DNA from: Chiridota heheva
Lineage: Eukaryota; Echinodermata; Holothuroidea; Apodida; Chiridotidae
Assembly: GCA_020152595.1 (NCBI GenBank)
Contig: JAIGNY010004089.1
Coordinates: forward strand, 97,001-161,000
Direction: 5' to 3'
DNA length: 64,000 nt
The position numbers and the translations under genes were made by a program. How positions within the stretch are numbered: position 1 is the stretch's first letter; each line of letters starts with the position of its first letter. A model generated the notes under the pieces. It had not been told where the DNA came from, made no database searches, and was given only the letters and a program-made list of their open reading frames with translations. This document shows, one piece after another, positions 740 to 64,000 of this stretch.

Positions 740-13817
<13,078 letters not shown>

Positions 13818-21092: not shown

Positions 21093-22424
21093 TTATTTGA
21101 ATGGGAGCACTTGAATGACTACCAAGTCATGACTAAGAATGGGAGCACTTGAATGACTACCAAGTCATGACTAAGAATGGGAGCACTTGAATGACTACCA
21201 AGTCATGACTAAGAATGGGAGCACTTAAATGACTACCAAGTCTTGACTAAGAATGGGAGCACTTGAATGACTACCAAGTCCTGACTAAGAATGGGAGCAC
21301 TTGAATGATTACCAAGTCATGACTAAAAATGGGAGCACTTGAATGACTACCAAGTCCTGACTAAGAATGGGAGCACTTCAATGACTACCAAGTCATGACT
21401 AAGAATGGGAGCACTTGAATGACTACCAAGTCTTGACTAAGAATGGGAGCACTTGAATGACTACCAAGTCATGACTAAGATGGAGAGCACTTAAATAACT
21501 ACCAAGTTATAACTAATAAGAGCACTTGAAAGACTACCAAGTCATGACTAAGAATGGAAGCACTTGAATAACCACCAAGTTATAACAAAGAATGGGAGCA
21601 CTTGAATGACTACCAAGTCCTGACTAAGAATGGGAGCACTTGAATGACTACCAAGTCATGACTAAGAATGGGAGCACTTGAATGACTACCAAGTCATGAC
21701 TAAGAATGGGAGCACTTGAATGACTACCAAGTCATGACTTAGATTGAGAGCACTTAAATAACTACCAAGTTATGACTAATGGGAGCAATTGAAAGACTAC
21801 CAAGTCATGACTAAGAATGGGAGCACTTGAATAACCACCAAGTTATAACAAAGAATGGGAGCAGTTGAATGACTACCAAGTCAGGACTAAGAATGGGAGC
21901 ACTTGAATGATTACCAAGTCATGACTAAGAATGGGAGCACTTGAATGACTACCAAGTCCTGACTAAGAATGGGAGCACTTGAATGACTACCAAGTTATGA
22001 CTAAGAATGGGAGCATTTAAATGACTACGAAGTCATGACTACCAATGGGAGCACTTGAATGACTACCAAGTCTTGACTAAGAATGGGAGCACTTGAATGA
22101 CCACCAAGTCATGACTAAGATTGAGAGCACTTAAATGACTACCAAGTTATGACTAATGGGAGCACTTGAATGACTACCAAGTTATGACTAAGAATGGGAG
22201 CAATTGAATGACTACCAAGTCATAACTAAGAATGGGAGCACTTGAATGACTACCAAGTCATGACTAAGAATAGGAGCACTTGAATGACTACCAAGTCATG
22301 ACTAAGAAATGGAGCACTTAAATGACTACCAAGTCATGACTAAGAATGGGAGCACTTGAATGACTACCAAGTTATGGCTAAGAATGGGAGCACTTGAATG
22401 ACTACCAAGTCATGACTTGGAATT
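21093..22424. repeat. 38-bp satellite array
   Basis: About 35 copies of AATGGGAGCACTTGAATGAC plus TACCAAGTCATGACTAAG. Most units contain the 10-bp palindrome AGTCATGACT. Variant units (AAGTTATGACTAATGGG, TTAAATAACTACC) recur at intervals, which suggests higher-order duplication of several units at a time. Confidence 0.96.
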
Positions 22425-24756: not shown

Positions 24757-24962
24757 TTAATTGAAAAAGTCATCAAACAAATCTGAAATTCCTTCGTTGT
24801 CACCTAACGCAAATAGATAATCGTCAACGGCAGGTGGCGATAACGGGACAAAGTCATCATGAAAGGCTGAATTCTGGTCTTCTGTTAAAAGAAGATTTCT
24901 CCCAAGGTCGGAAAGGTCATCCACTTCTAAGGAGTTTACTTTCAGGGCTGGATCACCTCCAC
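24757..24962 (-). CDS. E2F3: E2F terminal exon 8 (pRB-binding)
   Basis: 67 residues plus a split Ser, stop TAA at 24757-24759. Contains [17 protein letters not shown] and then [20 protein letters not shown], the acidic transactivation/pRB-pocket-binding motif (human E2F3 [17 protein letters not shown]). Acceptor TTTTTTAG. Confidence 0.95.
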
Positions 24963-27900
24963 CTAAAAAAAATGGAGCAAAAATTTGAGATTAGAGTATG
25001 AATACACTTGCTGTTTGGATCAGAGGTTCCACTTAAATATCTGAATAAGCTTTAATCAAAGCCTCGGGCCTCTCAGCCAATCTAGGGGCCTCTCAGCCAA
25101 TCTGGGGGTCTCTCAGCCAATCTGGGGCCTCTCAGCCAATCTAGGGTGTCATTCCTGAATGAGCAGTTGAGACCCCAGCACCATCAATTTTGATTCATGA
25201 ATACTGAACAAATTCATACAGAACAACTGTGCAGTATACAGTGTGATGTCAAACTTACAGGTCGAAGGCAATTTTTTTAACGTATTTTTTAAAGAAAAAC
25301 ACACATACACTTTTCTCCCTTATTAAGAATTTGGAAATACGTGGGCAGACGGGCAAAGCATGTTCTTGTAAAGTGCATGTTTTACCCCATCCCAATAATA
25401 ATACAAAAACTCTAATAAAAGAAATGCAAAAAAATTGACTTGGATCTGCAAGTATGACATCACGGATCTGCATGTATGACATGGATCTGCGTGTATGACA
25501 TCATGGATCTGCAAGTATGACACCACAGATCTGCATGTATGACATCACACATCTGCAAGTGTGACACCACAGATCAGCATGTATGACACCACAGATCAGC
25601 ATGTATGACATCACAGATCTGCAAGTATGACATCACAGATCTGCAAGTATGACACCACAGACCAGCATGTATGACACCACAGATCAGCATGTATGACACC
25701 ACAGATCTGCAAGTATGACATCACAGATCTGGAAGTAGGATATCACACTGGAGACTAGTCTGGGCACTTTTCAACAACTAATATCTTGTGAAATGCAGTA
25801 ATAAGATATCTACATGTTAATTCACAGGAATATTCAATTATCCACGTATTCATTTACAAAATCATTCAAATTACAATGAAACTTTCGGAGACGCTCTCGG
25901 TTATCAGACCAAAACTTCAGGAGAGCAGGTAGCTCAGTTGGCAGAGTGCACGACTGAGATGCTGGAGATCCTGATTCAAGGCTCGGTCAGGTCCTTCCAC
26001 AGCTATGCAAACAGATACGCCGAACCATCAAAGCAGAAGCATTTTGTCTGCAGCTCTTACTCATTCAGCTGTTGAAAGAGTGGCAATGGTTGAATGGTGT
26101 ACACCGTCCTACGGAGGGGAAGTTAAGCTGTCAGTCCCGATGGTAGGACAGTGACATCCTACCTGGTTCTCTGAACACTATTCAAGAAGAGAAGCATGGA
26201 CAATGTAGTGTTCATTCTATTCCAGTCCCAGTCCAGTCATGTTGAGCGCACCGTCTCTAGCTGTAGCTGAAGGATTTGACTGGCGCGCAAGGAGATGATG
26301 TAGAATTGTGATATTGCGCAATTAGAGCTGTGACCGTTTAGCGTGTACACGCTACACGCTCGCAAATCTTGTAAACGTTTACTAAATACTTCACTGCGAG
26401 TAATCGTTTTTCATACATCATAGTGTCTTGCCGTTGAAAATCAATATTCATGATTCAAATCACACACACATTCGGCTGACAAAATTCCAATTAATGACTT
26501 TTTACAAACTGTAAACCCGATTAGCATAATCCTTTTTAAATGTGCGAATCACAAATGCGCAGTAATCACCAATGAATGGGGATATTATGCACTTTGATTT
26601 CGCCAAAATCTAAGTAATATAACTTGTAAAATGCACCGTGAATGTGCAGCAGTAAACAGTGAAACTAACAATAGGCCTAACGATAGGCCATAAGGCTTTA
26701 AATCCCACGCATTTATCGACCAAAAAACACTTGAATTGTGACAATCAGTACATTTACATGTAAATATTACCTGATGAGTCAAATAAATTTTGCAATAAAA
26801 GACAAAATATTGCATAATAAATAAACAGAAAAAGGTTTTAATAGAGCTGAAATTTTGCATGCTTCGCAAAGATGGTGGCCATTTTTTCGAGAGGACTGAT
26901 ATTTCCGTTCTTCCTGGTGGTGGTGGCGTAGTTTTAAAATGTTTTACGGCGAGGTACATCATAGGCCTCAGTATGCAAAATTTTCACAGAACTTTGAAAG
27001 CCGTAGCGAATAGGACAAAAAAGTTACGCGATGTTGAGTTTAAATGACATTGAAAGGAAGTTATCTGTTCTTTCTAAACTGAATTTCCATGCAAATTTTC
27101 CATAAAAATGATGATTTATACTGTAGAAGTAAACTTTTTACGATTTGGAAAGCAACACTTAGCGTCTATTTGGGCAATGCAGTCAGTACTTTTGCCATAC
27201 TGGTTGCACGATTTTTTTACTTCGCCTGGTAGTTTTGGAGCAATTTTGGTGTATTTCCGAAAATTACGGTACTAAACTCGTATACACGATACACGCTCGC
27301 TTTTTTTGGTGTGTACACATTTACTAAAATCCCTAAACGCTCACGGCTCTATGCGCAATATAAGAAACCGATAGCAACCAGCCCCTCCACTAATATGTTT
27401 CAGCTGATGTCATGAGGTCACATGGCTTTGTTTACATCGATATTTTGTAGGATTGAAAAACACTGTCGTCTGCTGTACAAATACATACTTTTGCATGTTG
27501 TTATACATGTTATATAAGATTATTTTTGTAAGATAAATATGCTGGAATCTTACATGTGCTGTTGGTTGCACTAATAGATGTGTTTAAATTTCAGTGATTA
27601 AGATTAATTGGAAGAGTAATTTTGCCTCTGAATAACATTTTACATAACAAAATAATTCATCTGGCTAGTTTACTATAACCAGCGAGTGTTTTATATGCGT
27701 AGTGCATGTTTTACATGCCCCAGCGCATGCTATAGTAGGACCGAGTCTGTTTATTTTACGCATGGTATAAGTGAGCTGTGTGAAGATTAAACGTGTAAAA
27801 TGCTCAACACACAAAGCTTTGTCCTACAAAATGGCTTCCAGTTGAGTTATAGTCACGTGATGAAAACCCTCTATAGGAGAGCACTTACTTTTTGGCGTTG

Positions 27901-30900
27901 TGGGTGATTCTTGTTCTGGAAATGAAAGTTCTTCTTCTTTCCGGCACTCCTCTGGACACAAGTACACCTCGATTTGCCCTCTCGTGCTCTTCAGCCAAAT
28001 TTGAATGCCCTACGAGAGCGATTATAAACAAAGTTAAAAATAATTCATTTTGTAATCTACAAAGATGGTTAGCCCAATAATTCATTTCCTTCTAAATGTT
28101 AAGACAAATGGAAGAGTTCAGTTAGTTGCCGACAGTACTAAATTTAAATCATATACCACTGTTCAAGAGTACTTAAAAAAATTTAATACGGATCAGATTT
28201 CACTGTTTCAGATCAGATTTCACTGTTTCGGATGAGATTTCACTGTTTTGGATGAGATTTCACTGTTTCGGATGAGATTTCACTGTTTCGGATGAGATTT
28301 CACTGTTTCGGATGAGATTTCACTGTTTCGGATGAGATCTCCCTGTTTCGGATCAGATCTCCCTGTTTTGGATCAGATCTCACTGTTTTGGATCAGATCT
28401 CACTGTTTTGAATCAGATCTCACTGTTTCGGATCAGATTTCACTGTTTCGGATCAGATTTCACTGTTTCGGATCAGATTTCACTGTTTCGGATCCGATTT
28501 CACTGTTTCGGATCCGATTTCACTGTTTCGGATCCGATTTCAGTTTCGGATCCGATTTCACTGTTTCGGATCCGATTTCACTGTTTCGGATCCGATTTCA
28601 CTGTTTCGGATCAAATTTCACTTTTTTCTTAATCTCTACCTGTCCATATACCTTTAATTCCATGACATAGTGTCATGCTATATCCAATTTCAACATATAT
28701 AAGACAACAACAAAGAACCCTGCGTGAATGAATAATTCACACACAGGAAAACAAATTTTGTACCATTTATAATTAAAAACCCGACGAGTTTAGACTTACT
28801 TCTTTAGGATCTGGAACTTCTAGTTTCGTCTCTGGAGGCGCCTTTATTGCAATTACTGTTTGGTCTTCAAAACTATGAATACTTCGGATATCGTGATATG
28901 TTACATATGCAAATGTAAGGCTAAGTCAAGGATAACAACCGTGTTTAACTTACGTGAGCTTTTAGAGACAGAAAATATTACTTTATCGATTCTAAATCTA
29001 TTAACACACAAAGCATCGAAATAAAATCATACCAAGGTCTGTGTATACCCAGTAACAGACTTGACAATTCAGGACAGATTATATATACAATGAAAATACG
29101 TTCCCGTTGTGCCTCAGCGTCAAGGATTGACAAATCAACCAAAAATCAACTTGTCTGACGGGCAGGCGGATCTGAATCCGTGGTGGTCCTGAAATTAGTA
29201 AGGTGGTCCTGAAGTAAGTAAGGTAATCCTGAAATTAGTAAGGTGGTCCTGAAATTAGTAAGGTGGTCCTGAAATTAGTAAGGTGGTCCTGAAATTAGTA
29301 TGGTGGTCCTGAAATTAATAAGGTGGTCCTGAAATTGGTAAGGTGGTCCTGAAATTGGTAAGGTGGTCCTGAAATTAATAAGGTGGTCCTGAAATTAGTA
29401 AGGTGGTCCTGAAATTAGTAAGGTGGCCGTGGCCCAGGGAAATTTTTTGTATACATATGATGCAAATTTTCCTGAAAACTTAGTTGTCCGTCCGGGCAGG
29501 TCAAGCAAATGTCATGGATGCCAGGATAAGATTTCTGGTTGTCCGGACAGCAGGACGTATGATTTGTCAAACGCTACTCAACATGGTGGGATTGTTTGCA
29601 CCAAACCTGGGTTTATCTTTGATAAAATCACTCACTATCAATTTTTCTTTTGCTGTTTGGTCATTTATTACCAAAATTACTGTCCACGACAGTCAAACAA
29701 AACAAGTTGATAAAATCACTCGCTAAAATCACTTGTAAATTTTCCTTTTGCTGTTTGGTTATTTATTACCAAAATTACTGTCCACGACAGTCAAACAAAA
29801 TAAGTTGATAAAATCACACACTAAAATCACTTGCTATAAATTTTCCTTTTGCTGTTTGGTTATTTATTAACAAAATTACTGTTCACTAGTCAAACAAACA
29901 AGTTGATAAAATCACTCACTAAAATCACTCGCTATAACTTTTCTTTTTGCTGTTTGGTTATTTACCAAAATTACTGTTCACGACAGTCAAACAAACAAGT
30001 TGATAAAATCACTCGCTAAAATCACTTGCTATAAATTTTCCTTTTGCTGTTTGGTCATTTATTACCAAAATTACTGTTCATTAGTCAAACAAACAAGTTG
30101 ATAAAATCACTTACTAAAATCACTCGCTATGACTTTTCTTTTTCTTGTTTGGTTATTTACCAAAATTACTGTTTACGACAGTCAAACAAACAAATTGACC
30201 CAAAAAATCTCACTGTTTGATGTTCAGCGTTTTAGCTTTCCTCAAAGGGTTGTTAATGAGTGGAATAGTTTGTCTGAGTGGGTGTACCCGGTTAGCTCTG
30301 ATTAAGTGAATGTTCTATTTCAAAGTCAACATTGATGTTGTTTGATTTTGTTTAATAGTTCTTTTGTATTTTTTCTTTCGAGGTGGTGGTCTTGAAGTTT
30401 AAGCTTTTCATGGGGTGACTAACACTTTGTAACCAAACATCAAAGCAGAAGCATTTCGTCTGCAGCTCCTACTCCTCATTCAGCTCTTGTGAAAAGTGAC
30501 AATGGTTGAACGGCGCACACCGTCCTTCAGAGGGAACGTTAAGCTGTCAGTCCCAATGGCAGGAGAATCACCCCTGCCTGGTTCTCTGAGCACTATTGGA
30601 GAAGAGATGCGTGAAAATGCGGTGTTCACTCACTTTCCCTTCCTTTCAAGTACTAAGTTCACGTGCACCCTTGGGCAGCCGGAGAACTAGTCTGTTAGTT
30701 GTAGAGTGCATTTGAATAGATCTTTAAAACTAGAAAATGCGCCATACAAATTCTATATTAATATAATCTTATGTAATGATGATAATATTTGAAAAAGGAT
30801 ATCTTTTATTTTCTGGATTTTCCGTTAACATCTTGAGCTGGAGAGATGCACTGCGTAGTACGTCATCTAAGTTCTTCTCTTGCATACCTAAATAATTATT

Positions 30901-33900
30901 TTCTGCAAAAACAATTAGAAAGGAAAACACAATCAGTAATAGATTATGAATTCATGATATAGTCAATAATTATAATGCATACATACATACAATAGGCTTT
31001 TATACTATGCCATTCCATATAGACCACAGCCCCTTCAGCCAAGTTCTCCGGCTGCCAACAAATCTGCGCATATGAACTTGGACTGGGCAGGACAGGAAAT
31101 AAATGAACACCACATTTTCACGCTCTCTTCTCGAATAGTGTACAGAGAGCCAGGCAGGGGTGACTGTCATGCCATTAAAATCGACAGCTTAATGCCCCCC
31201 TGACAGCTTAACGTCCCCTCCGAAGGACAGTGTGCACCATTCAACTATTGTCACTCTTCCAACAGCTGAATGAGGATCGGAGCTGCAGACAAAATGCTTC
31301 CGCTTTGATGTCCGGCGTATCTGTCTGCATAGCTGTGGGAGAATGGAGTTAGACCTGACCGAGCCTTGAACCCGGGACACCTCCAGCATCTCAGTCGTGC
31401 ACTCTGCCAACTGAGCTGCCTATTCTCATAATAATGTGATTCAGTACATTTTTCCGTAGTGACTGTTGATAAAGGAATATTTTATTTTAATAAATATGAC
31501 ATCAGGACTTTTGAAGAAACATATTGGTGGGAAAAATGATGTGATACTTTCGAATCAAATACAATTTTCATGTGCAGTAATGTTGATATTTCATTTTATT
31601 TAGTAGTTTTTACATTTTTAGTAAGCCTAGTGGCTCCATGAGCCTAATGGCCCTATGAGCCTAATGGCTCCATGAGCCTAGTGGCTCCATGAGCCTAATG
31701 GTTCCATTAGCCTAATGGCCCTGTGTGCCTAATTGAGCCTAATGGCTTAATGAGCCTTATAGCCCGTGAGCCTAATGGCACCATAAGCCTCATAGCGCTG
31801 TGAGCCTAATGGCTTCATGAGCCTAATGGTTTGCATGGAATTAGCCAGAACCGTAAATTGTTTCCAGGTCTGAACTGACAGACCCGCCAAAAATCATGGT
31901 TGCCAGGATATGATTATAGAGGGATTTCATCATGTGACTTTAAACTCAACTGGACTCCATTTTGCAGGGCAGTGGCATTGCTGCATTTCACGCATCCTCA
32001 CACATGCTCAGTCACATCACACGTACAACAAACATACTACTGCACATGCTAACCAGAGGTTGTATAATAATTTTTTGTCTGGCGTATTTAGTTACGACAA
32101 CCCCTTGATTTTCGGCGAATTTTGTCAATTTGCCGTTGTATGTACAGGGCACTGTGTAATGTACAAGGCACTGCGCAATTATGAAGCTTGCAAGTGTTGT
32201 TAAGACACACATACACACTTGTGTAGCCTTGCCTTGCTAAAATGAAAGAAAATTTCGCTTAAAATACCAAAAACATTAGAAAATCAAACTATCATTATCA
32301 TATAAAAATATTAAGAAAAAGTTCTCACCTAATCCTTGTATAATGCCAAAATAAAATATAAAAATACTTTTGTTTATTGTATTCAAACTTTCATTAGGTT
32401 TTAGTGAACTTTGACCACTTGTCAGTGATAATATACTATTGAGATCTCGAACACGCCTACTTCTTTACAGTATAGTAACTTGACTTGCAGATTGTGATCA
32501 ATTCACAGATACACAATCTTACACATACAACACAATACAGGAGGAAAGTAGAATCCTATCTAATAATATGGTTGACAATTGGCAGCCTGCATTCAAAACA
32601 ACATCAAAACTCTCACGTACAGTGTACATGTATACTGACTATAGTACTAGCCTATATGTGTTATGTACAGTACTTGTATGGACATGTTGAATCATTCAGC
32701 CGTTAGTCTCGTAATTGTGTCATTTTTCTTTTATTTCTGAGTAAACGAAAATCAATTTTTGTGTGAAATTCTGGCGTAAAATTTCACATGCTATATCTAT
32801 ATTTTACGATGCAGGTACAACATGTGTCATAAGAAATTTCAACCATAGCGTAATATACGACAAATTTGTCGTTAACGCAAACCCTGATGCTAACCTACCT
32901 GTACCAGCTCAGCGAATTTTACTAATTACAATTTCTTATTTTTTTGCTACCAAGTTTACTTCATATATACCTTAAGTTTTATATTTTCACTGGGTATACG
33001 AAGAGTACCTTTAACATTAACGCCAGCTGATTGTTTGTTATACTCAAATCCTATACCTGATATAAAGTGCTCGCTGCAAATAGTAAGAACTGTAGGTTGA
33101 AGCCGTCACATCGTACAGCAGAAACCTACTTCGAACGTCGATCAAGATCAGATGGAAATCGATAAGAAGTCTTTTTATTCCCCCGCACACATATACTAGT
33201 GCAACCAATGGCACAGCAAGATTCCAGCATAATTGTCTTACAAAAACTAATCTTATATAACAACATGCAAATGTATGCAAGTCTAATTAAGTGTATAGCA
33301 GAGGAAAGTGTTTTCCCCCGACAAAATGGCGATGTAAACAAAGTCATGTGACGTCGGCTTAAACACCCCTATTGGTTGCAATGGGTAGCCAGATGAGTAA
33401 TTTGTTGAAGGTGGATATATATAGAGCACCCACTAGAAATGACATACAAAACTTTGACATTTAAGAATAATAATGAATGTATTTTTGTCTGTATGGTTTA
33501 AGACATATTGCTTACCTTCTGTTAAATTTAACGTCTCTGGACTAATTTGATGACTTTTGGCATCGGGAGCTGTGTAGCTGCTGGAACCCCTGCAAAATGA
33601 GAATATACGGCTTATGACGAACATCCATATATACAGTGCTACTCAAAAGTATGAAGTTCATTACAATGCAGAGATAAACAACCACAGTAAGGAACAATGG
33701 ATACTAGAAATGCAAAGAAGAAAATGTCTGGTAACAGGGGGTGAGAATGGGGTGCGGGCAGATTGTCTCTGAGAAGAGACAGAATTTATACATTTTTCTT
33801 TTCCCCCCCCTCCCTTCTTCAACTCCTGGTAAATAAATACCTCCTCTAAATATTTGTGGAAAAATGACACTTACTTCCATTCAATGTTTTCCTCCTCCCT

Positions 33901-36900
33901 CCACCCCCGCCCCTTCACCCCCCCCTCCCATCTTCAACCTCTGGTAAATAAATACCTCCTCTAAATACTTGTGGAAAAATGCCACTTACTTCCATTCAAT
34001 GTTATTTTTTGCCTCTTGGTGATGAGTTTAATTCCTTCAAGTACATTCGTTATATCGTATATTCTCCTCTTCTGGACATTAAGTTCTTCTGCTGCTCTGT
34101 TTAAGTCAGGATACCGTCTGGCGCCATCCGTAGTAAACTGACAAATCTTTTTGTAAGAAGCCCTAAGGATGTTTCATATCTAGACTTTTCTGATGGAGAT
34201 TTGGTACCTGGGATAAAGAACAAAAAGATATCAACAAAATTCAGATGGGGCAAGAACTGTAAAGATTTAATCTAATGCTGTCACGACATGGTTCTATTAC
34301 GCATCGATTATCGTCAAGAAAAATATCGCGATATATCGTATATTGCAATACTTTTAAGAAAACTGACTCACGACACAAATTGTTAATATCACTAATGTTA
34401 TATGATCATGGAGTTACAATTTACTCCATGATATGATGAACACAAGAACAAATTATTTCCAGATCTAGCAGACAAAATGATCGCGTGACTATTACGTTCA
34501 TCACGCACGTGTTTGGTAATTCAGCCAACGTGATCATGAATCATCGAAGTGAGAACCTGAGTGGCACATTCTGGACCAATTTTTTGTTCTTTTTGCCAAC
34601 TTACATTGGCAACGTGCCAGTGTGTGGTGACGGAGCACAATTTTTAATTAGTTGTTTTTTGTTTCACGATTATTTTGCACATTTTTAATGGGCTAAACTT
34701 GACTTTTAGATTAGTACCGTAACATTAGAATTGTAAGGTACGAAGTAGCCTAATCTAGTATCGCGAAAATGTATTAGTTGAGTATTAGTTTTTGGTGTCG
34801 CGATATGTCGCGAGGCACATTGCATGTTGTGGGAAAAGAGATATCATGATAATCGATTTGTCATCACAGCACTAATTCATTCTTGGATGGTTAGAAACAG
34901 GTATTCAACATCCAACACAGTGCCTTAGTTTTTTATTTTCAGAGGCCCACCCGCCACTCTTGTGGCCTACCCCATCCCCATTTGACCCACCCTGCCCCTC
35001 TCATCAGAAAAAAAATAAGTTTTATTATTTGTTTTTAATTAAACATGTATGCTTAATGCTTTAGAGATCAAATTCTTTAAGATCTTAAGCTCATACAGTA
35101 AGTGAAATACCTTCCATGGATACAGAATGATAGCATAGTAAGAAATTGTCCTGTTTGACTCATGAACGATCCTTAATCATTCAAAATAGTTTTATTCTGA
35201 GGTAGGATTATAGCTCAAATCCAAGAGCTTCAGCCTAAAGGCTTGGATCCCATACCGAAAAAAGGTGCTCGCTTTGCATGCATTAAGTGCAACAAAACAA
35301 GCTACGGGTGTGGAAAGATTTCAGCAAAATAAATTTCTTGTAATATAACTTTGTATTGTTTTTTTGTTTAAATAATTATACCTGAAAACATTACAGTTAA
35401 ACAGAATTTTCCTCTTTCATTGCATGACCTACTGTTTGCTTGAAACATGCAGCACTTTACTGCAGAGTTGGAAATAATTATAAAATTAATAAAGGTGTTG
35501 AAATTCTTCCCAAGAAAAATTGGGACAAGAAATAATATTAATGTAGTAAATACATCTTTATATGCTTTGCAATCTAATGTACTAGTCATCGCACAAGTAC
35601 ATGGGTACGCTTTTAGAGCACATATTTACCATATGTACCGCTGCTTGCTTTATCTTTCAAAAAATAAAATAATGATGAAATTCCCCCCCTCCTCCAAGAA
35701 TTCCTGTTTTTCCCGCGGTTATAACCACTGGAACTGTAAAAAATTCCTTCTATGTCTGCTTTTCTGTACCTTTGGGGCTTTTAGTGGGTTTTTTCTTCAT
35801 TTTTGGTGGACTTGGCGTTTTAAAACCAACATTATTTGACAATTCCATCGCCAACATGGACAGATCCATCTGCAGCTTCCTCTTTGCCTGAATAAAAAAA
35901 GAAAGAAACTTCAAGAAGATATACTTCTATAACACTACTGTGCTGGCTACCCCACTGGCGAAATGAATTAGGGGACCCGGGCATGTAAGAGTTCTCCTCT
36001 TGGTTGTCCTGAAATCCACCATTGATAAAAAATAAATAAGAAAAAAATTGATGCAAAAAATTATGGCAATATCTGCATAACACCCTTCAAAACTTCCAGT
36101 TTCAATAAGAGACCCCTCCCCTAGCTTTGCTGTTTTGGGGCCACCCCGCCCTTCCATGGGCCTGCCCCCTGCCCCCTGGGGGTCCGCCCTGTCCCTCATG
36201 AGAAAAAAATGTTTCTTTTTTAAAAACCTAATAATCCTAATTAACCTTATAAATGAAATACCTTACATGGATACATAAACACAGAATGATAGCATCGTAA
36301 GGAATTGTCCTGTTTAGCTCATGAATGGTCCTTATCAATATCAGTTAAAATAGTTTCATTCTGAGGTATGATTATAGCTAAAATCCCAGAGCTACTTCAT
36401 CGTGGGATTGAGCCTTAAGGAGGCCCCTGGACTCCACGTCGAAAATACGCAGCACTTCGCAAGCGCATTAATGTGCCTCAACAAGTCTAGCACCCTGCCC
36501 CTTTTTAAATCAAGCTAGGGGTCTGCCACCCTCCCCAAAGATAGACCTATGGGTTTTACTCATAAACCAAAGTGTCAATGGTAAAGAAAGTTTGAAAGTT
36601 TATGCAAATGTAAATATTTGTGTAGAAGTGACTGAAATTAGAAAAGAACAGGATCAGAGAACCAGACATGAGGTATGAAAACCCTGTTGACGAGATGCAG
36701 ATTACCAAAATCCGCACTTGATGTCGGCATACTGTTCTGCATATCTGTAAAAAATTGTGTATTAAATAATTGTTTCGACTTGGACCTGGAACCTCCAGCA
36801 TATCAGTAGTGCTGGTATGCTCAAGCCAACTGCGCCACCTACCTCCTGTGTGATATCACTCATGTCATGAGCTGGAAACATAAAAAAGATGTATGACTAT

Positions 36901-37854
36901 GAGGATGAGTACAAGATTATGCCCCAACCTGTAAAGGCTGCAAGGCCCCATAAAAGAAAATATTATCTTATCACCCTCACCCCCATTCGTTTTGAGAGAA
37001 TCCCAGTTCTTTTAATTTTCAAAAAGTACTGGGCTATAATTTTCTCTCGGATCAGTATTTCAGCATCCATATTTCCATTTCTTTTACTTCCAAAATACAA
37101 ACGGGTGTTTTGTTGTGTTATAATAGTATAAAATATTCATTATTATTAATAGGCCTGATGTGGTTGACCTTGATCCGGACAGCTGCAAATCACCAAAATG
37201 AATTGGCGTGGGATAAAAAAAAAAAAAACCTCCCTCCCTCATCATTTTTCAAACTGGGTCAGGGTAATAAGCTAATTAGGCCTAGGGGGGCCTAATACTT
37301 GTTTTACTTTACGGGCCTAATAAATCATATTGACAGTATCTCTAATGCCATGTTAAATACTAAAATCTAAATGCTAGCAAAACATAAGGCCTCTATCAAA
37401 TTTACCCAAGACTTTACATCATTTTTTGGTCGTTCCATCCAGGCAACCGGACAGGTCAGAGGTAGGCCTATTTGTCAATTTCCTGTTTGAGGCCTAATCT
37501 TAGGCCCTACCGAACAAAATCAAGAAATTCTAAACAAAAGTAACAAGAAATGAAAATAAAATTAATGCAAAAGATTATTAATCTGAAATTATAAATAGAT
37601 GTCCCGACACCTACCGGTGGTCTGCCAAGCAAGGGACGTGTCCCCTTTGTCTGCAAACTTTCAGGCGTGAAGCCCACCACATCTAGTTCTTCCTCTTGGT
37701 CGTCCTGAAATCCACCCTGAATTCTTGTGAAAGCTGAACCTAAATGATTATCTATCAAACTATCTGTAGGCAAATTAATGTCAAAAATGGTTGCATTGTC
37801 ACCGATTGAAAAATGATTCTCCAACGAAAAGCTGTCGTGATTAAACCCTGACAT
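24757..37854 (-). CDS. E2F3: E2F1/2/3-type transcription factor (eight exons; two frame breaks in exon 3)
   Basis: Sequence-specific activator that pairs with DP proteins and is restrained by pRB; it drives S-phase genes in the nucleus. Exons in transcription order: 37854-37615, 35887-35770, 34207-33990, 33589-33516, 30902-30803, 28914-28800, 28009-27889, 24962-24757. Six introns are GT-AG; intron 5 is AT-AC. All phases agree if exon 3 is two bases longer than given; the product would then be 397 residues. Domains: cyclin-A/NLS-like PPAKRKLQM (about 79-87), winged helix (about 125-192) with [13 protein letters not shown], a short Leu-rich helix, marked box with AYVTYHDIR and [11 protein letters not shown] (about 228-310), [14 protein letters not shown], and the C-terminal pRB-binding [19 protein letters not shown]. 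Read literally, the frame stops after about residue 154 within the DNA-binding domain. Assembly error is the likeliest reason, as everything else is intact. The choice of E2F3 over E2F1/2 is uncertain. Confidence 0.93.
25068..25147. repeat. 20-bp tandem repeat, four copies
   Basis: GGCCTCTCAGCCAATCTGGG units in E2F intron 7. Confidence 0.9.
25443..25740. repeat. 22-bp minisatellite in E2F intron 7
   Basis: About 13 copies of GATCTGCAAGTATGACATCA plus CA, with GATCAGCATGTATGACACC variants. Confidence 0.93.
25921..26275 (+). mobile_element. tRNA-derived SINE, copy 1
   Basis: Starts with a tRNA-like head: A-box TAGCTCAGTTGGCAGAGTGC and B-box-like GATTCAAGGCTC. A conserved body follows (ACCGTCCTACGGAGGGGAAG, TTAAGCTGTCAGTCCC), shared with copies at 30435, 31016 and 36655. 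Polymerase III promoter elements are recognisable but the head does not fold as an intact tRNA. Confidence 0.8.
26323..27351 (-). mobile_element. hAT-like non-autonomous transposon, copy 2 (inverted)
   Basis: Perfect 8-bp duplication TGCGCAAT at 26315-26322 and 27352-27359. Ends TAGAGCTGT and CGGCTCTA. It is 1029 bp and is the reverse complement of the copy at 6017-7077 along its length. It lies in E2F intron 7. Confidence 0.88.
27360..27888. other. E2F intron 7, right part
   Basis: Nothing recognised apart from ATGAGGTCACATGGCTTTGT and the following TTACATCGAT near 27413-27442. This resembles, in reverse, the segment at 33332-33352 in intron 4, so it is probably a dispersed repeat. Confidence 0.4.
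27889..28009 (-). CDS. E2F3: E2F exon 7 (end of marked box)
   Basis: [20 protein letters not shown] followed by an acidic ECRKEEE stretch. Matches human [20 protein letters not shown]. Acceptor CTCGTAG, donor GTAAGT, phase 0 in and 1 out. Confidence 0.95.
28193..28625. repeat. 20-bp minisatellite in E2F intron 6
   Basis: About 21 copies of GATNNGATTTCACTGTTTCG. Variants lie in blocks: GATGAG (about 28220-28340), GATCAGATCTC (28340-28425), GATCAGATTTC (28430-28490) and GATCCG (28490-28610). The plus ORFs ([11 protein letters not shown] repeats) are by-products. Confidence 0.96.
28800..28914 (-). CDS. E2F3: E2F exon 6 (marked box), after the U12 intron
   Basis: [20 protein letters not shown] then [15 protein letters not shown]. 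The exon follows an AC, not AG, intron end; the first base completes Arg251. Donor GTAAGT. Confidence 0.94.
29190..29430. repeat. 20-bp minisatellite in the U12 intron
   Basis: About 12 copies of AAGGTGGTCCTGAAATTAGT with AATAA and TTGGT variants. Confidence 0.95.
29615..30195. repeat. About 97-bp tandem repeat, six copies
   Basis: Units contain GATAAAATCACTCACTAAAA, TTTTGCTGTTTGGTTATTTA and CCAAAATTACTGTTCACGAC, with small indels between copies. Confidence 0.85.
30215..30345 (+). pseudogene. LINE-like reverse transcriptase tail relic
   Basis: The plus strand reads [20 protein letters not shown], which resembles the FFSQRVVNVWNSLP tail seen in many invertebrate LINE polymerases. A stop and frameshift follow. 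Too short to class further. Confidence 0.6.
30435..30690 (+). mobile_element. tRNA-derived SINE, copy 2 (head missing)
   Basis: Carries the shared body: ATCAAAGCAGAAGCATTTCG, CACACCGTCCTTCAGAGGGA and CGTTAAGCTGTCAGTCCC, to GGGCAGCCGGAGAAC. The tRNA-like head is absent (5' truncation). Confidence 0.78.
30803..30902 (-). CDS. E2F3: E2F exon 5 (dimerisation helix)
   Basis: [20 protein letters not shown] then [12 protein letters not shown]. Matches human [27 protein letters not shown]. Acceptor TTTTGCAG; the donor is ATATCCTTTTTC (U12 type). Confidence 0.94.
31016..31436 (-). mobile_element. tRNA-derived SINE, copy 3 (full length, reverse)
   Basis: On the minus strand it reads GGCAGCTCAGTTGGCAGAGT at the head, a B-box-like GGGTTCAAGGCTC, the body (CTTCGGAGGGGACGTTAAGC) and the tail GGCAGCCGGAGAACTTGG. 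It is the most complete copy and lies in E2F intron 4. Confidence 0.82.
31620..31835. repeat. 17-bp minisatellite in E2F intron 4
   Basis: About 12 diverged copies of TGGCTCCATGAGCCTAA. Confidence 0.92.
31836..33515. other. E2F intron 4, remaining part
   Basis: Short ORFs only, none bounded by splice sites in frame with E2F. Nothing recognised. Confidence 0.45.
33516..33589 (-). CDS. E2F3: E2F exon 4
   Basis: [20 protein letters not shown] then NLTE, a poorly conserved linker before the Leu-rich helix. Acceptor TTTTGCAG, donor GTAAGC. It needs two bases from the previous exon (phase 2), which exon 3 as printed does not supply. Confidence 0.88.
33804..34003. repeat. 115-bp tandem duplication covering the 3' end of E2F exon 3
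   Basis: The segment TAAATACCTCCTCTAAATAC ... CACTTACTTCCATTCAATGT occurs twice at an offset of 115. The right copy contains the last 14 or so bases of exon 3 and its donor; the left copy (about 33866-33888) carries the same donor inside intron 3 as a possible decoy splice site. Confidence 0.85.
33990..34207 (-). CDS. E2F3: E2F exon 3 (DNA-binding domain) with two 1-base deletions
   Basis: Encodes [17 protein letters not shown], then APDGIL, then [24 protein letters not shown] and a final NIEWK-type end. The frame shifts between 34107 and 34108, where a C is missing (plus strand AGTCAGG, expected AGTCCAGG). It shifts again in the T-run 34005-34010, which needs seven Ts. With both bases restored the exon is 220 nt and its end phase (2) fits exon 4; as printed it is 218 nt and does not. 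Acceptor TATCCCAG, donor GTAAGT. Confidence 0.92.
34273..34874. mobile_element. hAT-like element, 602 bp, in E2F intron 2
   Basis: Ends TAATGCTGTCACGACA and (reverse) TAGTGCTGTGATGACA, with CGATTATCGTC and TATCGCGATAT motifs inside, typical of hAT elements. Flanks ATTTAATC (34265-34272) and ATTCATTC (34875-34882) agree at 6 of 8 positions, a decayed target duplication. Confidence 0.75.
34940..35290. repeat. Segment duplicated on both sides of E2F exon 2 (left copy)
   Basis: Shares GGATACAGAATGATAGCAT-type sequence, TTGTCCTGTTTGACTCATGA and TTCTGAGGTAGGATTATAGC with 36140-36470. The pair flanks exon 2. Confidence 0.7.
35770..35887 (-). CDS. E2F3: E2F exon 2
   Basis: [20 protein letters not shown] then [19 protein letters not shown]. 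With the end of exon 1 it forms PPAKRKLQM, equivalent to the cyclin A-binding/NLS motif of E2F1-3 (PPVKRRLDL). Acceptor TTATTCAG, donor GTACAG. Confidence 0.9.
36140..36470. repeat. Segment duplicated on both sides of E2F exon 2 (right copy)
   Basis: See 34940-35290. Nearby at about 35990-36025 the minus strand reads [10 protein letters not shown], close to [10 protein letters not shown] of exon 1; about 27 bases of exon 1 appear to have been copied into intron 1 as well. Confidence 0.65.
36655..36855 (-). mobile_element. tRNA-derived SINE, copy 4 (diverged, reverse)
   Basis: The minus strand reads GGTGGCGCAGTTGGCTTGAG at the head and CACTACTGATATGCTGGAGG, matching the head and following region of the other copies with more differences. 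Confidence 0.6.
36856..37614. other. E2F intron 1, right part
   Basis: Short ORFs only. No coding exon or known repeat recognised. Confidence 0.45.
37615..37854 (-). CDS. E2F3: E2F exon 1 (start)
   Basis: 80 residues, [15 protein letters not shown] ... GRPP. The ATG at 37854 is the first in frame after a TAA at 37975-37977. The GTG upstream at 37872 is not needed. Donor GTAGGT. Confidence 0.88.
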
Positions 37855-47685: not shown

Positions 47686-49605
47686 GGCAATTATTTCCCC
47701 CTTTCCAATGGAGGACACTTCTTGCCCCCTTTCCAATGGAGGACACTTCTTGCCCCTTTCCAATGGAGGACACTCTTGCCCCCTTTCCAATGGAGGACAT
47801 TTCTTGCCCCCTTTCCAATGGAGGACACTTCTTGCCCCCTTTCCAATGGAGGATACTTCTTGCCCCCTTTCCAATGGATTGTACTTCTTGCCCCCTTTCC
47901 AATGCAGGGCACTTCTTCCCCCTTTTCCAATGGAGGGCACTTTGTCCTCCTTTCCAATGAAGGGCACTTATTTTCCTTTTCTAATGGAAGGCACTTCCTC
48001 CCTTTTTCCAATGGAAGGACATCTTCTTTTCCCCTTTCCAATGGAGGTACACTTCTTGCCCCCTTTCCAATGGAGGGCACTTCTTTTCCCCTTTCCAATG
48101 GAAGGACACTTTTTGCCCCCTTTTTTTCAATGGAGGATACTTCTTTGCCCCCTTTCCAATGGAGGACACTTCTTGCCCCTTTTTCCAATGGAGGATACTT
48201 CTTTGCCCCCTTTCCAATGAAGGACACTTGCCTCTTTTCCAATGGAGGACACTTCTTGCCCCTTTTTCCAATGGAGGACACTTCTTTCCCTTTCCAATGA
48301 AGGGCACTTCTTGCCCCCTTTTTCCAATGGAAGGTACTTCTTTCCCCTTTCCAATGGAAGACACTTCTTGCCCCCTTTTTCCAATGGAGGACACTTCTTT
48401 TCCCCTTTCCAATGGAAGACACTTCTTGCCCCCTTTTTCCAATGGAGGACACTTCTTTTCCCCTCTTCAATGGAAGACACTTCTTGCCCCCTTTTTCCAA
48501 TGGAGGACACTTCTTTTCCCCTTTCCAATGGAAGACACTTCTTGCCCCATTTTCCAATGGAAGACACTTCTTTTCCCCTTTCCAATGGAAGACACTTCTT
48601 GCCCCCTTTTCCCAATGGAGGACACTTCTTTCCCTCTTCAATGGAAGATACTTCTTGCCCCCTTTCCAATGGAGGACACTCTTGCCCCCTTTCCAATGGA
48701 GGACACTCTTGCCCCCTTTCCAATGGAGGATACTTCTTGCCCCCTTTCCAATGAAGGGCACTTCTTGCCTCTTTTCCAATGGAGGACACTTCTTGCCCCC
48801 TTTGCAATGAAGTGTACTTCTTGCCCCCTTGCCAATGGAGGACACTTCTTCCCCTTTCCAATGGAGGACACTTCTTACCCCCTTTCCAATGGAGGACACT
48901 TCTTTTCCCCTTTCCAATGGAGGACACTTCTTTCCCCTTTTCCAATGGAGGACACTTCTTACCCCCTTTCCAATGGAGGACATTTCTTTTCCCCTTTCCA
49001 ATGGAAGGCACTTCTTGCCCCCTTTCCAATGGAGGACACTTCTTGCCCCCTTTCCAATGGAGGACACTTCTTGCTCCCTTTCCAATGGAGGATACTTCTT
49101 GCCCCCTTTCCAATGGAGGATACTTCTTGCCCCCTTTCCAATGGAGGACACTTCTTTTGCCCCTTTCCAATGGAAACTTCGTTTGCTCCCTTTCCAATGA
49201 AGACACTTCTTACCCCCTTTTCCAATGGAGGACACTTCTTTTTTTCCCCTTTGCAATGGAGGATAACCCTTTCAATGGAGGATACTTTTGCCCCCTTTCC
49301 AATGGAAGACACTCTTGCCCCCTTTCCAATGGAGGGCACTTCTTGCCCCCTTTCCAATGGAGAATACTTCTTGCCCCCTTTCCAATGAAGGGCACTTCTT
49401 GCCTCTTTTCCAATGGAGGACACTTCTTTTCCCCTTTCCAATGGAGAACACTTCTTTTCCCCTTTCCAATGGAAGACTCTTCTTACCCCATTTTCCAATG
49501 GAGAACACTTCTTGCCTCTTTTCCAATGGAGAACACTTCTTGCCCCCTTTTCCAATGGAGGACATTTCGTGCCCCCTTTCCAATGGAGGACACTTCTTGC
49601 CCGTG
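47686..49605. repeat. 28-bp minisatellite, about 68 copies
   Basis: Unit TTCCAATGGAGGACACTTCT plus TGCCCCCT, varying from 26 to 30 bp through C/T-run length. The superperiod of 84 bp gives a 28-residue pattern that cycles through all frames, so stop-free ORFs of up to 521 (minus) and 409 (plus) residues occur. Variants (AATGAAGGGCACTT, AATGGAAGACACTTC, GGATACTTC) cluster in runs. A higher-order block near 48300-48620 alternates GGAAGACACTTC and GGAGGACACTTC units. Confidence 0.97.
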
Positions 49606-51659: not shown

Positions 51660-54065
51660 TAATATAAAGTGCAACCCCCTCACCCCTCTTTCAACTAACA
51701 TCCTGATTGAGATAATCAGAGAGTGCATCCCCCTTCCCCCTTAACTAACACCCTGATTGAGATAATCAGAGAGTGCATCCCCCTCCCCCTTAACTAACAC
51801 CCTGATTGAGATAATCAGAGAGTGCATCCCCTCCCCTTAACTAACACCCTGATTGAGATAATCAGAGAGTGCATCCATTCCCCTCCCCTTAACTAACACC
51901 CTGATTGAGATAATCAGAGAGTGCACTCCCTCAACTAACACCCTGATTGAGATAATCAGAGAGTGCACCCACAACTAACATCCTGATTGAGATAATCAGA
52001 GAGTACACCCCCACAACTAACATCCTGATTGAGATAATCAGAGAGTGCACCCCCACAACTAACATCCTGATTGAGATAATCAGAGAGTGCACCCTCAACT
52101 AACCCTGATTGAGATAATCAGAGAGTGCACCCCCTCAACTAACATCCTGATTGAGATAATCAGAGAGTGCATCCCCCCCTCCCCCTCAACTAACACCTGA
52201 TTGAGATAATCAGAGAGTGCACCCCCTCAACTAACATCCTGATTGAGATAATCAGAGAGTGCACCCCCTCAACTAACATCCTGATTGAGATAAGTGCACC
52301 CCCTTAACTAACACCCTGATTGAGATAATCAGAGAGTGCACCCCCCTCAACTAACACCCTGATTGAGATAATCAGAGAGTGCACCCCCTCAACTAACACC
52401 CTGATTGAGATAATCAGAGAGTGCACCCCCTCAACTAACACCATGATTGAAATAATCAGAGAGTGCACCCCACCCCTCAACTAACATCCTGATTGAGATA
52501 ATCAGAAAGTGCACCACCCTCAACTAACATCCTGATTGAGATAATCAGAGTGCACCCCCACCCCTCAACTAACATCCTGATTGAGATAATCAAGACTGCA
52601 CCCCCTCAACTAACATCCTGATTGAGATAATCAGAGAGTGCACCCCCTCAAATAACATCCTGATTGAGATAATCAAGACTGCACCCCCCTCAACTAACAT
52701 CCTGATTGAGATAATCAGATAGTGCACCCCTCCTCAACTAACATCCTGATTGAGATAATCAGAGTGCACCCCCTCAACTAACATCCTGATTGAGATAATC
52801 AGAGAGTGCACCCCCCTCAACTATTATCCTGATTGAGATAATCAGAGAGTGCACCCCACCCCTCAACTAACTTCCTGATTGAGATAATCAAGACTGCACC
52901 CCCTCAACTAACATTCTGATTAAGATAATCAGAGAGTGCACCCTCAACTAACATCCTGATTGAGATAATCAGAGAGTGCACCCCCTCAACTAACATCCTG
53001 ATTGAGATAATCAGAGAGTGCACCCCCTCAACTAACATCCTGATTGAGATAATCAGAAAATGCACCCCCTTAACTAACATCCTGATTGAGATAATCAGAG
53101 AATGCACCATCCCCCTCCCTCAACTAACATCCTGATTGAGATAATCAAGACTGCACCCCCTCAACTAACATCCTGATTGAAATAATCAGAGAGTGCACCC
53201 CTCAAATAACATCCTGATTGAGATAATCAAGACTGCACCCCCTCAACTAACATCCTGATTGAGATAATCAGAGAGTGCACCCCCCTCAACTAACATCCTG
53301 ATTGAGATAATCAGAGTGCACCTCCCCCTCAACTAACATCCTGATTGAGATAATCAGAGAATGCACCCCCCCTCAACTAACATCCTGATTGAGATAATCA
53401 AGACTGCACCCCCTCAACTAACATCCTATTTGAGATAATCAGAGAGTGCACCCCCACAACTAACATCCTGATTGAGATAATCAGAGAGTACACCCCCACA
53501 ACTAACATCCTGATTGAGATAATCAGAGAGTGCACCCCCACAACTAACATCCTGATTGAGATAATCAGAAAATGCACCCCCTCAACTAACATCCTGATTG
53601 AGATAATCAGAGAATGCATCATACCCCTCAACTAACATCCTGATTGAGATAATCAGAATGCACCCTCCTAACATCCAACTAGCATCCTGATTGATTAAGA
53701 TAATCAGAGTGCACCTCCCCCTCAACTAGTATCCTGATTGAGATAATCAGAGTGCACCCCCTCAACTAGCATCCTGATTGAAATAATCAGAGTACACCCC
53801 ACAACTAACATCCTGATTGAAATAATCAGAAGTACACCCCTCAACTAACATCTTGATTGAGATAATCAGAGAATGCACCCCCTCAACTAACATCCTGATT
53901 GAAATAATCAGAGTACACCCCACAACTAACCCCCAGAGAGTCAACTAGCATCCTGATTGAGATAATCAGAGAATGCACCCCTCAACTAACATCCTGATTG
54001 AGATAATCAGAGTTAACCCCCACAACTAACATCCTGAATGAAATAATCAGAGAGTGCACTCCTCA
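51660..54065. repeat. 42-bp satellite, about 57 copies
   Basis: Unit CTCAACTAACATCCTGATTG plus AGATAATCAGAGAGTGCACCCC, 38-46 bp through variation in C-runs. Every unit carries the inverted repeat CTGATT-GAGAT-AATCAG, a 6-bp stem with a 5-base loop. Units at the left end have longer C/T runs (CCCCCTTCCCCCTTAACTAA); the CAAGACTGCACC variant recurs at intervals. The minus ORFs (SLIISIRMLVEGVH repeats) are by-products. Confidence 0.97.
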
Positions 54066-55238
54066 AATTCTTTGCCTCAAAATTCTAACCCTTTCTGCTG
54101 CCCCTTCACTGCTCAGTATAAATCATATTTCAAAGAAAAATGCCAGAAGGAGAAATCATTTGATTAAATTACATTTATTTCAATGTCATAAAAATTCTTT
54201 TAAAACTTTTTTTTTTCCTGCTCAAAGCAGTTACACAAATCACTGCATTAGCCACATTTCTATGTAGAACTTATACATCTTAAAAACATTAGCGCCGGAA
54301 GTGGGGAGGGAAATGAAAGAGGCCATTACCCTCACTTTTCAGAAATTCCAGTTTTGGTCGCCCCTCCCCACTTTTAATGGTAAACCCAATTTACTTTCCA
54401 GCAAAATAACAACAAAAATATTAAGATTACAAAAACTGAACAGTAATTTAGGGATTCCCCTCCACCCGACCCCATCAAGTTGCAAATTTTCCAGCACCAC
54501 TGTTTAAAATATATGTTGCACCATGCCAGAATTTTCTTTAATAGTTAAAGAATGTTCTGACAACTCATTTCTAATTCTCCCTTAAACTGGTAAATTCCAA
54601 CCCCACAAATAAGTCTGTTTGTCACACATCAAATAAACTAAAGCTTGTTCAGGGTGCAACAATAGGGTTGGGGAAGGGTGGGTAAACCCCACTGACCTCT
54701 TTTTTTGTTTGGAGGGAGGGGGCCTGAACAATAACACTGTGATATGTTCTTCTGGACCCCAAAAGGTAAATTACCCATGGCCCAAAGATCTTCCTTGCAC
54801 CACTAAATCAAAGCTGGATCAGTGGATCAAAATTGTCTTGCTGTATTTTTAATCACAACATTTCGGTTGGGCGACATTTCAGAGAATCGATTTTAAATGC
54901 AAATATTCTATGGATGCTTTTGATACCACTCCAATTAATAACTATTTACACACAGAATATACTCATCCACACCTGGTACCAAACCCTGTATTCTCTGCCA
55001 ACAATAAATATTAGGTCACACACGGCAAACTCACAGGCACGCAAAATTCAAATGTACAAAGCAACTAGTAAAATATGTAAGAAAATGGAATGTTAAGTAC
55101 AGAAATGTATCATATGCAAAACTGAAATGCACATTTTTATTTTGTTTTATAAGCAAGATAAGACAAAACAAATATACTTATGGTTCCCTAAATTTCCAGT
55201 CTTAATCGGTAGTACTCCAGTATTCCACATTGACTTAA
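54066..55238. other. Intergenic, no feature seen
   Basis: No splice-bounded coding sequence or recognised repeat. Confidence 0.5.
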
Positions 55239-62157: not shown

Positions 62158-64000
62158 ATAATGCAACAATTAAACAGTGCATCTATTACAAATGTATGCA
62201 ACAATTCTTAAGACTATAATGCAACAATTAAAATGCATCTATTACAAAATCAATAATGCAACAATTAAACAGTGCATCTATTACAAATGTATCTTAGACT
62301 ATAATGCAACAATTAAACAGTGCATCTATTACAAATGTATCTTAGACTATAATGCAACAATTAAACAGTGCATCTATTAATCTATTGACTATAATGCAAC
62401 AATTAAACAGTGCATCTATTACAAATGTATCTTAGACTATAATGCAACAATTAAACAGTGCATCTATTACATCTATACTTAAGACTATAATGCAAAATGT
62501 ACAAATGTATCTTAGACTATAATGCAACAATTAAACAGTGCATCTATTACAAATGTATCTTAGACTATAATGCAACAATTAAACAGTGCATCTATTACAA
62601 ATGTATCTTAGACTATAATGCAACAATTAAAAGTGCATCATACAAATGTATCTTAAGACATCTATTACTATTAAAATGTATCTTAAGACTATAATGCAAC
62701 AATTAAACAAATGTATCTTAAGACTATAATGCAACAATTAAACAGTGCATCTATTACAAATGTATCTTAAGACTATAATGCAACAATTAAACAGTGCATC
62801 TATTACAAATGTATCAAGACTATAATGCAACAATTAAACAGTGCATCTATTACAAATGTATCTTAAGACTATAATGCAACAATTAAACAGTGCATCTATT
62901 ACAAATGTATCTTAGACTATAATGCAACAATTAAACAGTGCATCTATTACAAATGTATCTTAGACTATAATGCAACAATTAAACAGTGCATCTATTACAA
63001 ATGTATCTTAAGACTATAATGCAACAATTAAACAGTGCATCTGCATCTATTACAAATGTATCTTAGACTATAATGCAACAATTAAACAGTGCATCTATTA
63101 CAAATGTATCTTAGACTATAATGCAACAATTAAACAGTGCATCTATTACAAATGTATCTTAAGACTGCAACAATTAAACAGTGCATCTATTACAAATGTA
63201 TCTTAAGACTATAATGCAACAATTAAACAGTGCATCTATTACAAATGTATCTTAAGACTATAATGCAACAATTAAACAGTGCATCTATTACAAATGTATC
63301 TTAAGACTATAATGCAACAATTCTATTACACAAATGTATCTTAAGACTATAATGCAACAATTAAACAGTGCATCTATTACAAATGTATCTTAAGACTATA
63401 ATGCAACAATTAAACAGTGCATCTATTACAAATGTATCTTAAGACTATAATGCAACAATTACAAAATCTTAGTGCATCTATTACAAATGTATCTTAAGAC
63501 TATAATGCAACAATTAAACAGTGCATCTATTACAAATGTATCTTAAACAGTGCATCTACAAATAATGCAACAATTAAACAGTGCATCTATTACAAATGTA
63601 TCTTACAGACTATAATGCAACAATTAAACAGTGCATCTAATACAAATGTATCTTAGACTATAATGCAACAATTAAACAGTGCATCTATTACAAATGTATC
63701 TTACAAAAGACTATAATGCAACAATTAAACAGTGCATCTATTACAAATGTATCTTAAGACTATAATGCAACAATTAAACAGTGCATCTATTACAAATGTA
63801 TCTTAAGACTATAATGCAACAATTAAACAGTGCATCTATTACAAATGTATCTTAAGACTATAATGCAACAATTTAAATCTTAAGACTATAATGCAACAAT
63901 TCATCTATTACAAATGTATCTTAGACTATAATGCAACAATTAAACAGTGCATCTATTACAAATGTATCTTACAAAGACTATAATGCAACAATTAAACAGT
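62158..64000. repeat. 49-bp satellite, about 38 copies, open at the right edge
   Basis: Unit GACTATAATGCAACAATTAA plus ACAGTGCATCTATTACAAATGTATCTTAA, 47 or 49 bp (TTAGACT versus TTAAGACT). Several rearranged units lie near 62200-62260, 62480-62500, 62630-62700, 63310-63335, 63460 and 63545-63570. The array is not finished at 64000. Confidence 0.97.

What the first reader, a model, noticed from the sequence alone, without database searches (positions are those of the whole stretch)
28915..30802. U12-type AT-AC intron in E2F
Donor ATATCCTTT, branch ATCCTTGAC and terminal AC 11 nt from the branch A are all seen directly. The join restores the marked box without a frame change, and no GT donor lies near the end of exon 5. 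U12 introns are known to be conserved in E2F family genes. Expression of this cell-cycle regulator would therefore depend on the minor spliceosome in this animal.
Basis: partly seen in the sequence, partly recalled or inferred. Interest (0 to 1): 0.7.

Follow-up and report, generated by a model that had tools for sequence, protein, structure and literature searches.

The report
Conserved minor-spliceosome intron in E2F
An animal's E2F cell-cycle gene carries a rare AT-AC intron of the minor-spliceosome class, at the same codon as in a second E2F gene of the same genome, which fits the E2F minor introns already described in vertebrates.

Summary
An E2F1/2/3-type gene runs on the minus strand (8 coding exons, 37854-24757). 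Six of its seven introns have GT-AG termini; intron 5 (30802-28915, 1888 nt) has AT-AC. Its donor ATATCCTTT matches the consensus 9/9, its branch word ATCCTTGAC 8/9, and the final C lies 11 nt from the branch A. The join is phase 2 and aligns without a gap to human E2F1. It scores higher on Pfam E2F_CC-MB (116.6 bits) than an AT-AG end (111.9) or the 7 frame-keeping GT-AG joins of 50 tested (54.1-95.5). New evidence: the E2F4/5-type paralog in the same genome has an AT-AC intron at the homologous codon and phase, and U11, U12, U4atac and U6atac genes are in the assembly. E2F minor introns are well known in vertebrates, so this is an ordinary conserved instance. Caveats: two one-base frame breaks in exon 3 of this assembly, and weaker branch-plus-AC sites inside the intron.

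The parts
28915..30802 (-). U12-type AT-AC intron 5 of the E2F gene, 1888 nt, phase 2 (first base 30802, last base 28915)
30794..30802 (-). 5' splice site ATATCCTTT, 9/9 to RTATCCTTT; read on, CCTTTTT is complementary to AAAAAGG at the 5' end of this genome's U11
   Evidence: U11 alignment; consensus as printed in PMC2846911
28925..28933 (-). branch word ATCCTTGAC (8/9 to TTCCTTRAC), branch A at 28926
28915..28916 (-). terminal AC, 11 nt from the branch A
30803..30902 (-). exon 5: coiled-coil part, ends ...ENPENK plus AG of an arginine codon
28800..28914 (-). exon 6: first part of marked box (A completing Arg, then [11 protein letters not shown]...)
37615..37854 (-). exon 1, from ATG
35770..35887 (-). 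exon 2
33990..34207 (-). exon 3, E2F winged-helix DNA-binding domain; two one-base frame breaks near 34105 and 34010
33516..33589 (-). exon 4
27889..28009 (-). exon 7, rest of marked box
24757..24962 (-). exon 8, C-terminal region ending ...[14 protein letters not shown], stop; looks like the pocket-protein-binding region of E2F1-3 (recalled, not tested)
29109..29127 (-). second ATCCTTGAC (branch A 29120) with AC at 29110-29109, 11 nt on; decoy or cryptic acceptor

Best explanation
Intron 5 of this E2F1/2/3-type gene is an ancestral U12-type (minor) AT-AC intron. Shown: the sequence signals, the frame, the domain restored, the same kind of intron at the homologous codon of the E2F4/5-type paralog, and the four minor snRNA genes in the assembly. 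Inferred: U11 and U12 recognise the donor ATATCCTTT and the branch UCCUUGAC, U6atac takes over the donor, and the intron is cut at the AC at 28915. The minor spliceosome is thereby needed for full-length E2F; if the intron is kept, reading runs into a stop 11 codons after the last complete codon of exon 5, before the marked box and the C-terminal region.
For: Donor 9/9, branch 8/9, branch-to-end 11 nt, phase 2. Both signals near the exon edges in 1 of 20,000 shuffles. Join aligns gap-free to human E2F1 across the junction, NKR-FAYVT with SQR-LAYVT. Pfam E2F_CC-MB: AT-AC 116.6 bits against 111.9 for an AT-AG end and 54.1-95.5 for the 7 of 50 tested GT-AG combinations that keep the frame. E2F4/5-type paralog on contig C2476: AGTAG|ATATCCTTTACC ... 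TTCCTTAACAGCTTCTTAC|ATTAGCATATATA, same codon, phase, subtype and 11-nt distance. U12 116.9 and 81.3 bits, U6atac 115.9 and 112.4, U11 91.4 and 71.3, U4atac 81.9, with 0 of 14 control genomes ringing in each; the U11 5' end AAAAAGGG, U12 GUAAGGA and U6atac AAGGAGAG stretches are intact. Retention gives a stop after ...[14 protein letters not shown]. In mammals E2F1-6 are given as minor-intron genes (PMC6717393, passages), and a U12 antisense oligo causes retention in E2F1 and E2F2 and alternative splicing of E2F3 in A549 cells (PMC12332006, passages).
Against: No RNA evidence. The branch word departs from the consensus at its first base. Two further branch words with at most 1 mismatch and an AC 11 nt on lie inside the intron, one of them identical to the proposed branch (29120/29109 and 29501/29490). 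The AT-AG end at 28921 scores only 4.7 bits lower. Two one-base frame breaks in exon 3, with no other full copy of the exon found in the assembly, leave open that the gene as assembled is not intact.
Confidence: 0.95

Rival explanations
1. The intron is removed by the major spliceosome at nearby GT-AG sites.
For: GT dinucleotides exist at -27, -49, -59 and -85 in exon 5 and at +55 and +72 in the intron; AGs exist near exon 6.
Against: Of 50 GT-AG combinations tested (5 of the 6 GTs with 10 AGs) only 7 keep the frame, and these score 54.1-95.5 bits against 116.6. No GT between -27 and +55.
Confidence: 0.02
2. U12-type intron with AT-AG ends: the 3' splice site is the AG at 28921, adding two codons.
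For: In frame; domain score only 4.7 bits lower.
Against: The AG lies 5 nt from the branch A, closer than U12 acceptors usually allow (recalled); the paralog has AC at 11 nt at the homologous codon; the two added codons would break the gap-free match to human E2F1.
Confidence: 0.02
3. An AT-AC intron spliced by the major spliceosome (rare U2-type AT-AC class).
For: U2-type AT-AC introns are listed at 0-0.05% in the rows seen of table 2 of PMC7367187 (passage).
Against: U12 donor 9/9 and branch word 8/9; a U12-type intron at the same place in the paralog.
Confidence: 0.01
4. The locus is a decayed E2F copy, so the intron is a relic.
For: Two one-base frame breaks in exon 3.
Against: The other seven exons are open and the protein reads as a conserved E2F. 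No other full copy of exon 3 was found in the assembly, so no intact sister of this type is at hand. Assembly error is the simpler reading.
Confidence: 0.04

Closest known systems
Minor (U12-type) introns of vertebrate E2F1-E2F6
   Same: Same gene family. The mouse E2f1 minor-intron primer in PMC12332006 (passage) codes for QLQESE, a stretch found upstream of the junction in the E2F1 chain, so the place is compatible.
   Different: Other animal. The exact codon, phase and terminal dinucleotides of the vertebrate introns were not seen in a call.
E2F4/5-type paralog on contig C2476 of the same genome
   Same: AT-AC intron, U12 donor and branch words, phase 2, same codon, 11 nt from branch A to end (distance is my count).
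   Different: Branch word is a 9/9 consensus match (TTCCTTAAC); intron 1778 nt by my count.

Membership tests
U12-type intron, AT-AC subtype | 5' splice site RTATCCTTT | tested here: met
   ATATCCTTT, 9/9
U12-type intron, AT-AC subtype | Branch site TTCCTTRAC close to the 3' end | tested here: met
   ATCCTTGAC, 8/9, A 11 nt from the end
U12-type intron, AT-AC subtype | Ends in AC, join in frame | tested here: met
U12-type intron, AT-AC subtype | Minor spliceosome snRNAs present in the genome | tested here: met
   U12, U6atac, U11, U4atac, each above its Rfam gathering score; minor-spliceosome proteins not searched
U12-type intron, AT-AC subtype | Removal from RNA by the minor spliceosome | not testable with these tools
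   no RNA data
E2F family minor intron (orthologous) | Intron at the homologous codon in another E2F gene | tested here: met
   E2F4/5-type paralog of the same genome
E2F family minor intron (orthologous) | Intron at the same codon in other animals | tested here: inconclusive
   no animal genomes to compare with; only a compatible mouse primer position
E2F1/2/3-type transcription factor | Winged-helix DNA-binding domain and CC-MB domain | tested here: met
   Pfam 92.6 and 113.6 bits, with X at two frame breaks in the first domain; marked box closer to E2F1 (77 bits) than to E2F4 or E2F5 (37.8, 34.1)
E2F1/2/3-type transcription factor | Continuous reading frame | tested here: not met
   two one-base frame breaks in exon 3 of this assembly; probably assembly error, unproven

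The most novel reading that the evidence does not exclude
The two identical branch words, each with an AC 11 nt on, form tandem U12 acceptors 194 nt apart. Use of the upstream one (29109) would give a short product that keeps the DNA-binding part and loses the marked box and C-terminal region, or a message removed by decay: a splice switch on E2F output set by minor-spliceosome activity.
Probability: 0.03. Interest if true: 0.45.

Novelty: new member of a known kind. Interest (0 to 1): 0.15.

Why it matters
It adds a same-genome pair of E2F genes sharing an AT-AC minor intron at one codon, which suggests that the intron predates the split of the E2F1/2/3 and E2F4/5 types. This supports the known view that E2F minor introns are ancient; it does not change it.

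Tried and rejected
GT-AG joins (50 combinations), an AT-AG end and the upstream AC decoy were tested and scored lower. Other U12-like pairs in the window were not pursued: a scan that allows one mismatch per signal gives many pairs over both strands, so such pairs alone mean little. Rfam finds no family at gathering score in the window itself. Paper searches gave, in the listings and passages that I saw, no exact codon of a vertebrate E2F minor intron; none of the searches was aimed at E2F introns of invertebrates, and three surveys searched inside for E2F (PMC10639083, PMC2846911, PMC7367187) do not use the word. The organism was not identified. A whole-genome search with PF16421 was asked for and never answered, so a further E2F gene with a marked box may have been missed. 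Of the five E2F_TDP places, the window gene and the E2F4/5-type gene were examined; the two on C2448 were not, and the one on C124 was only read and looks DP-like by eye.

Full report
What was claimed. What it listed is in the sequence: donor ATATCCTTTT at 30802, branch word ATCCTTGAC with branch A at 28926, and the final AC at 28916-28915, 11 nt from that A.

The gene. Eight coding exons can be laid out from ATG at 37854 to a stop at 24757. Of the seven introns six have GT at the donor and AG at the acceptor, and intron 5 has AT and AC. With X at two frame breaks the 397-residue product matches Pfam E2F_TDP (92.6 bits) and E2F_CC-MB (113.6 bits). In the PDB it matches five distinct sequences: two of E2F4 and one each of E2F1, E2F8 and E2F5. 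The E2F1/2/3 type rests on the better match of the marked box to E2F1 (77 bits) than to E2F4 or E2F5 (37.8 and 34.1 bits). The DNA-binding domain matched an E2F4 chain best (81.3 bits); no E2F1-3 DNA-binding chain was among the five.

The junction. Exon 5 ends in AG and exon 6 starts with A, so the intron splits an arginine codon after its second base (phase 2). The join reads [18 protein letters not shown] and aligns without a gap to human E2F1 SEDTDSQR-LAYVTCQDLRS. No GT lies between -27 and +55 of the exon end. Five of the six nearby GTs were combined with ten AGs; 7 of 50 joins keep the frame, and these score 54.1 to 95.5 bits on E2F_CC-MB against 116.6 for AT-AC and 111.9 for the AG at 28921. 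If the intron is kept, reading ends after ...[14 protein letters not shown].

Chance. The donor word alone is not unusual: a second exact copy lies at 454 on the + strand, and a scan that allows one mismatch per signal gives many pairs over the window. The conjunction at the exon edges is unusual: 1 of 20,000 dinucleotide-preserving shuffles had both signals within 30 nt of the edges, and the separate rates were 0.0014 and 0.011. This control is lenient, since the real signals sit exactly at the edges.

The paralog, a test within the same genome. The window lies in an assembly of 1.1 Gb. An E2F_TDP search there gave five places. One, on contig C2476, is an E2F4/5-type gene: its pieces match E2F4 and E2F5 better than E2F1 or the window protein. 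Its exon ends ...QFNS plus AG, followed by ATATCCTTTACC; the next exon is preceded by TTCCTTAACAGCTTCTTAC and starts ATTAGCATATATA, i.e. R-LAYIT. So the paralog has an AT-AC U12-type intron at the homologous codon and phase, also 11 nt from branch A to the end (my count). The other three E2F_TDP places were not examined for minor introns.

The machinery. The assembly holds at least two matches each to U12 (116.9 and 81.3 bits), U6atac (115.9 and 112.4) and U11 (91.4 and 71.3) and one to U4atac (81.9), each above Rfam's gathering score; these searches rang in 0 of 14 control genomes. Only the best candidates were scored, so counts are lower bounds. The alignments show the pairing stretches unchanged: U12 GUAAGGA, U6atac AAGGAGAG, U11 5' AAAAAGGG; that these are the pairing stretches is recalled. 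U4atac was not aligned. Whether the lower-scoring U11 and U12 copies are variants or pseudogenes was not tested. Minor-spliceosome proteins were not searched.

What is known. Passages seen, not whole papers: E2f1, E2f2, E2f3, E2f5 and E2f6 were listed in U12DB and E2f4 was added (PMC6717393); 75% of E2F genes have minor introns (PMC6865273); a U12 antisense oligo disturbs the splicing of E2F1-3 in A549 cells (PMC12332006); [quoted passage not shown] The mouse E2f1 minor-intron primer CAACTGCAGGAGAGTGAGC codes for QLQESE, present in the E2F1 chain upstream of the junction, so the place is compatible. About 26% of human minor introns are AT-AC (PMC10639083). In the listings and passages that I saw (and the passages above) nothing gave the exact codon or subtype of the vertebrate E2F introns; no search was aimed at E2F introns of invertebrates.

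Results against the reading. First, the nine-letter branch word occurs a second time in the intron, branch A 29120, again with an AC 11 nt on (29109); using it would give a truncated product (19.3 bits on E2F_CC-MB), and a third word with one mismatch (branch A 29501) also has an AC 11 nt on. Second, the AT-AG end at 28921 is in frame and only 4.7 bits behind. Third, exon 3 carries two one-base frame breaks, near 34105 and 34010. No other full copy of exon 3 was found in the assembly; the one other match is an 86-base piece next door, window 33803-33888. As the other seven exons are open and the product reads as a conserved E2F, I take the breaks as assembly errors, which only reads can prove.

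Verdict. A U12-type AT-AC intron by every sequence test made here, and ordinary for the E2F family. Dependence of expression on the minor spliceosome is a fair inference, unproven here.

Noticed in passing
window 33990-34207 (-): Two one-base frame breaks in the E2F DNA-binding exon, near 34105 and 34010; no other full copy of this exon found in the assembly.
   Followed up: partly
window 33803-33888 (-): An 86-base near copy (94% identical) of the end of E2F exon 3 with its donor and the start of the following intron, directly downstream of it.
   Followed up: no
window 2811-3005 (+): Open frame with a deaminase zinc-binding motif (Pfam dCMP_cyt_deam_1, 36.4 bits), resembling ADAT2 (recalled), running into a 27-base minisatellite.
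   Followed up: partly
window 3001-4426, 21099-22417, 47697-49602, 51691-54066, 62253-63873: Long minisatellite arrays (units of 27, 38, 28, 42 and 49 bases); two shorter arrays lie inside the U12 intron at 29182-29426 and 29623-30198.
   Followed up: no
window 29109-29127 (-): Second ATCCTTGAC with an AC 11 nt on, inside the U12 intron.
   Followed up: partly
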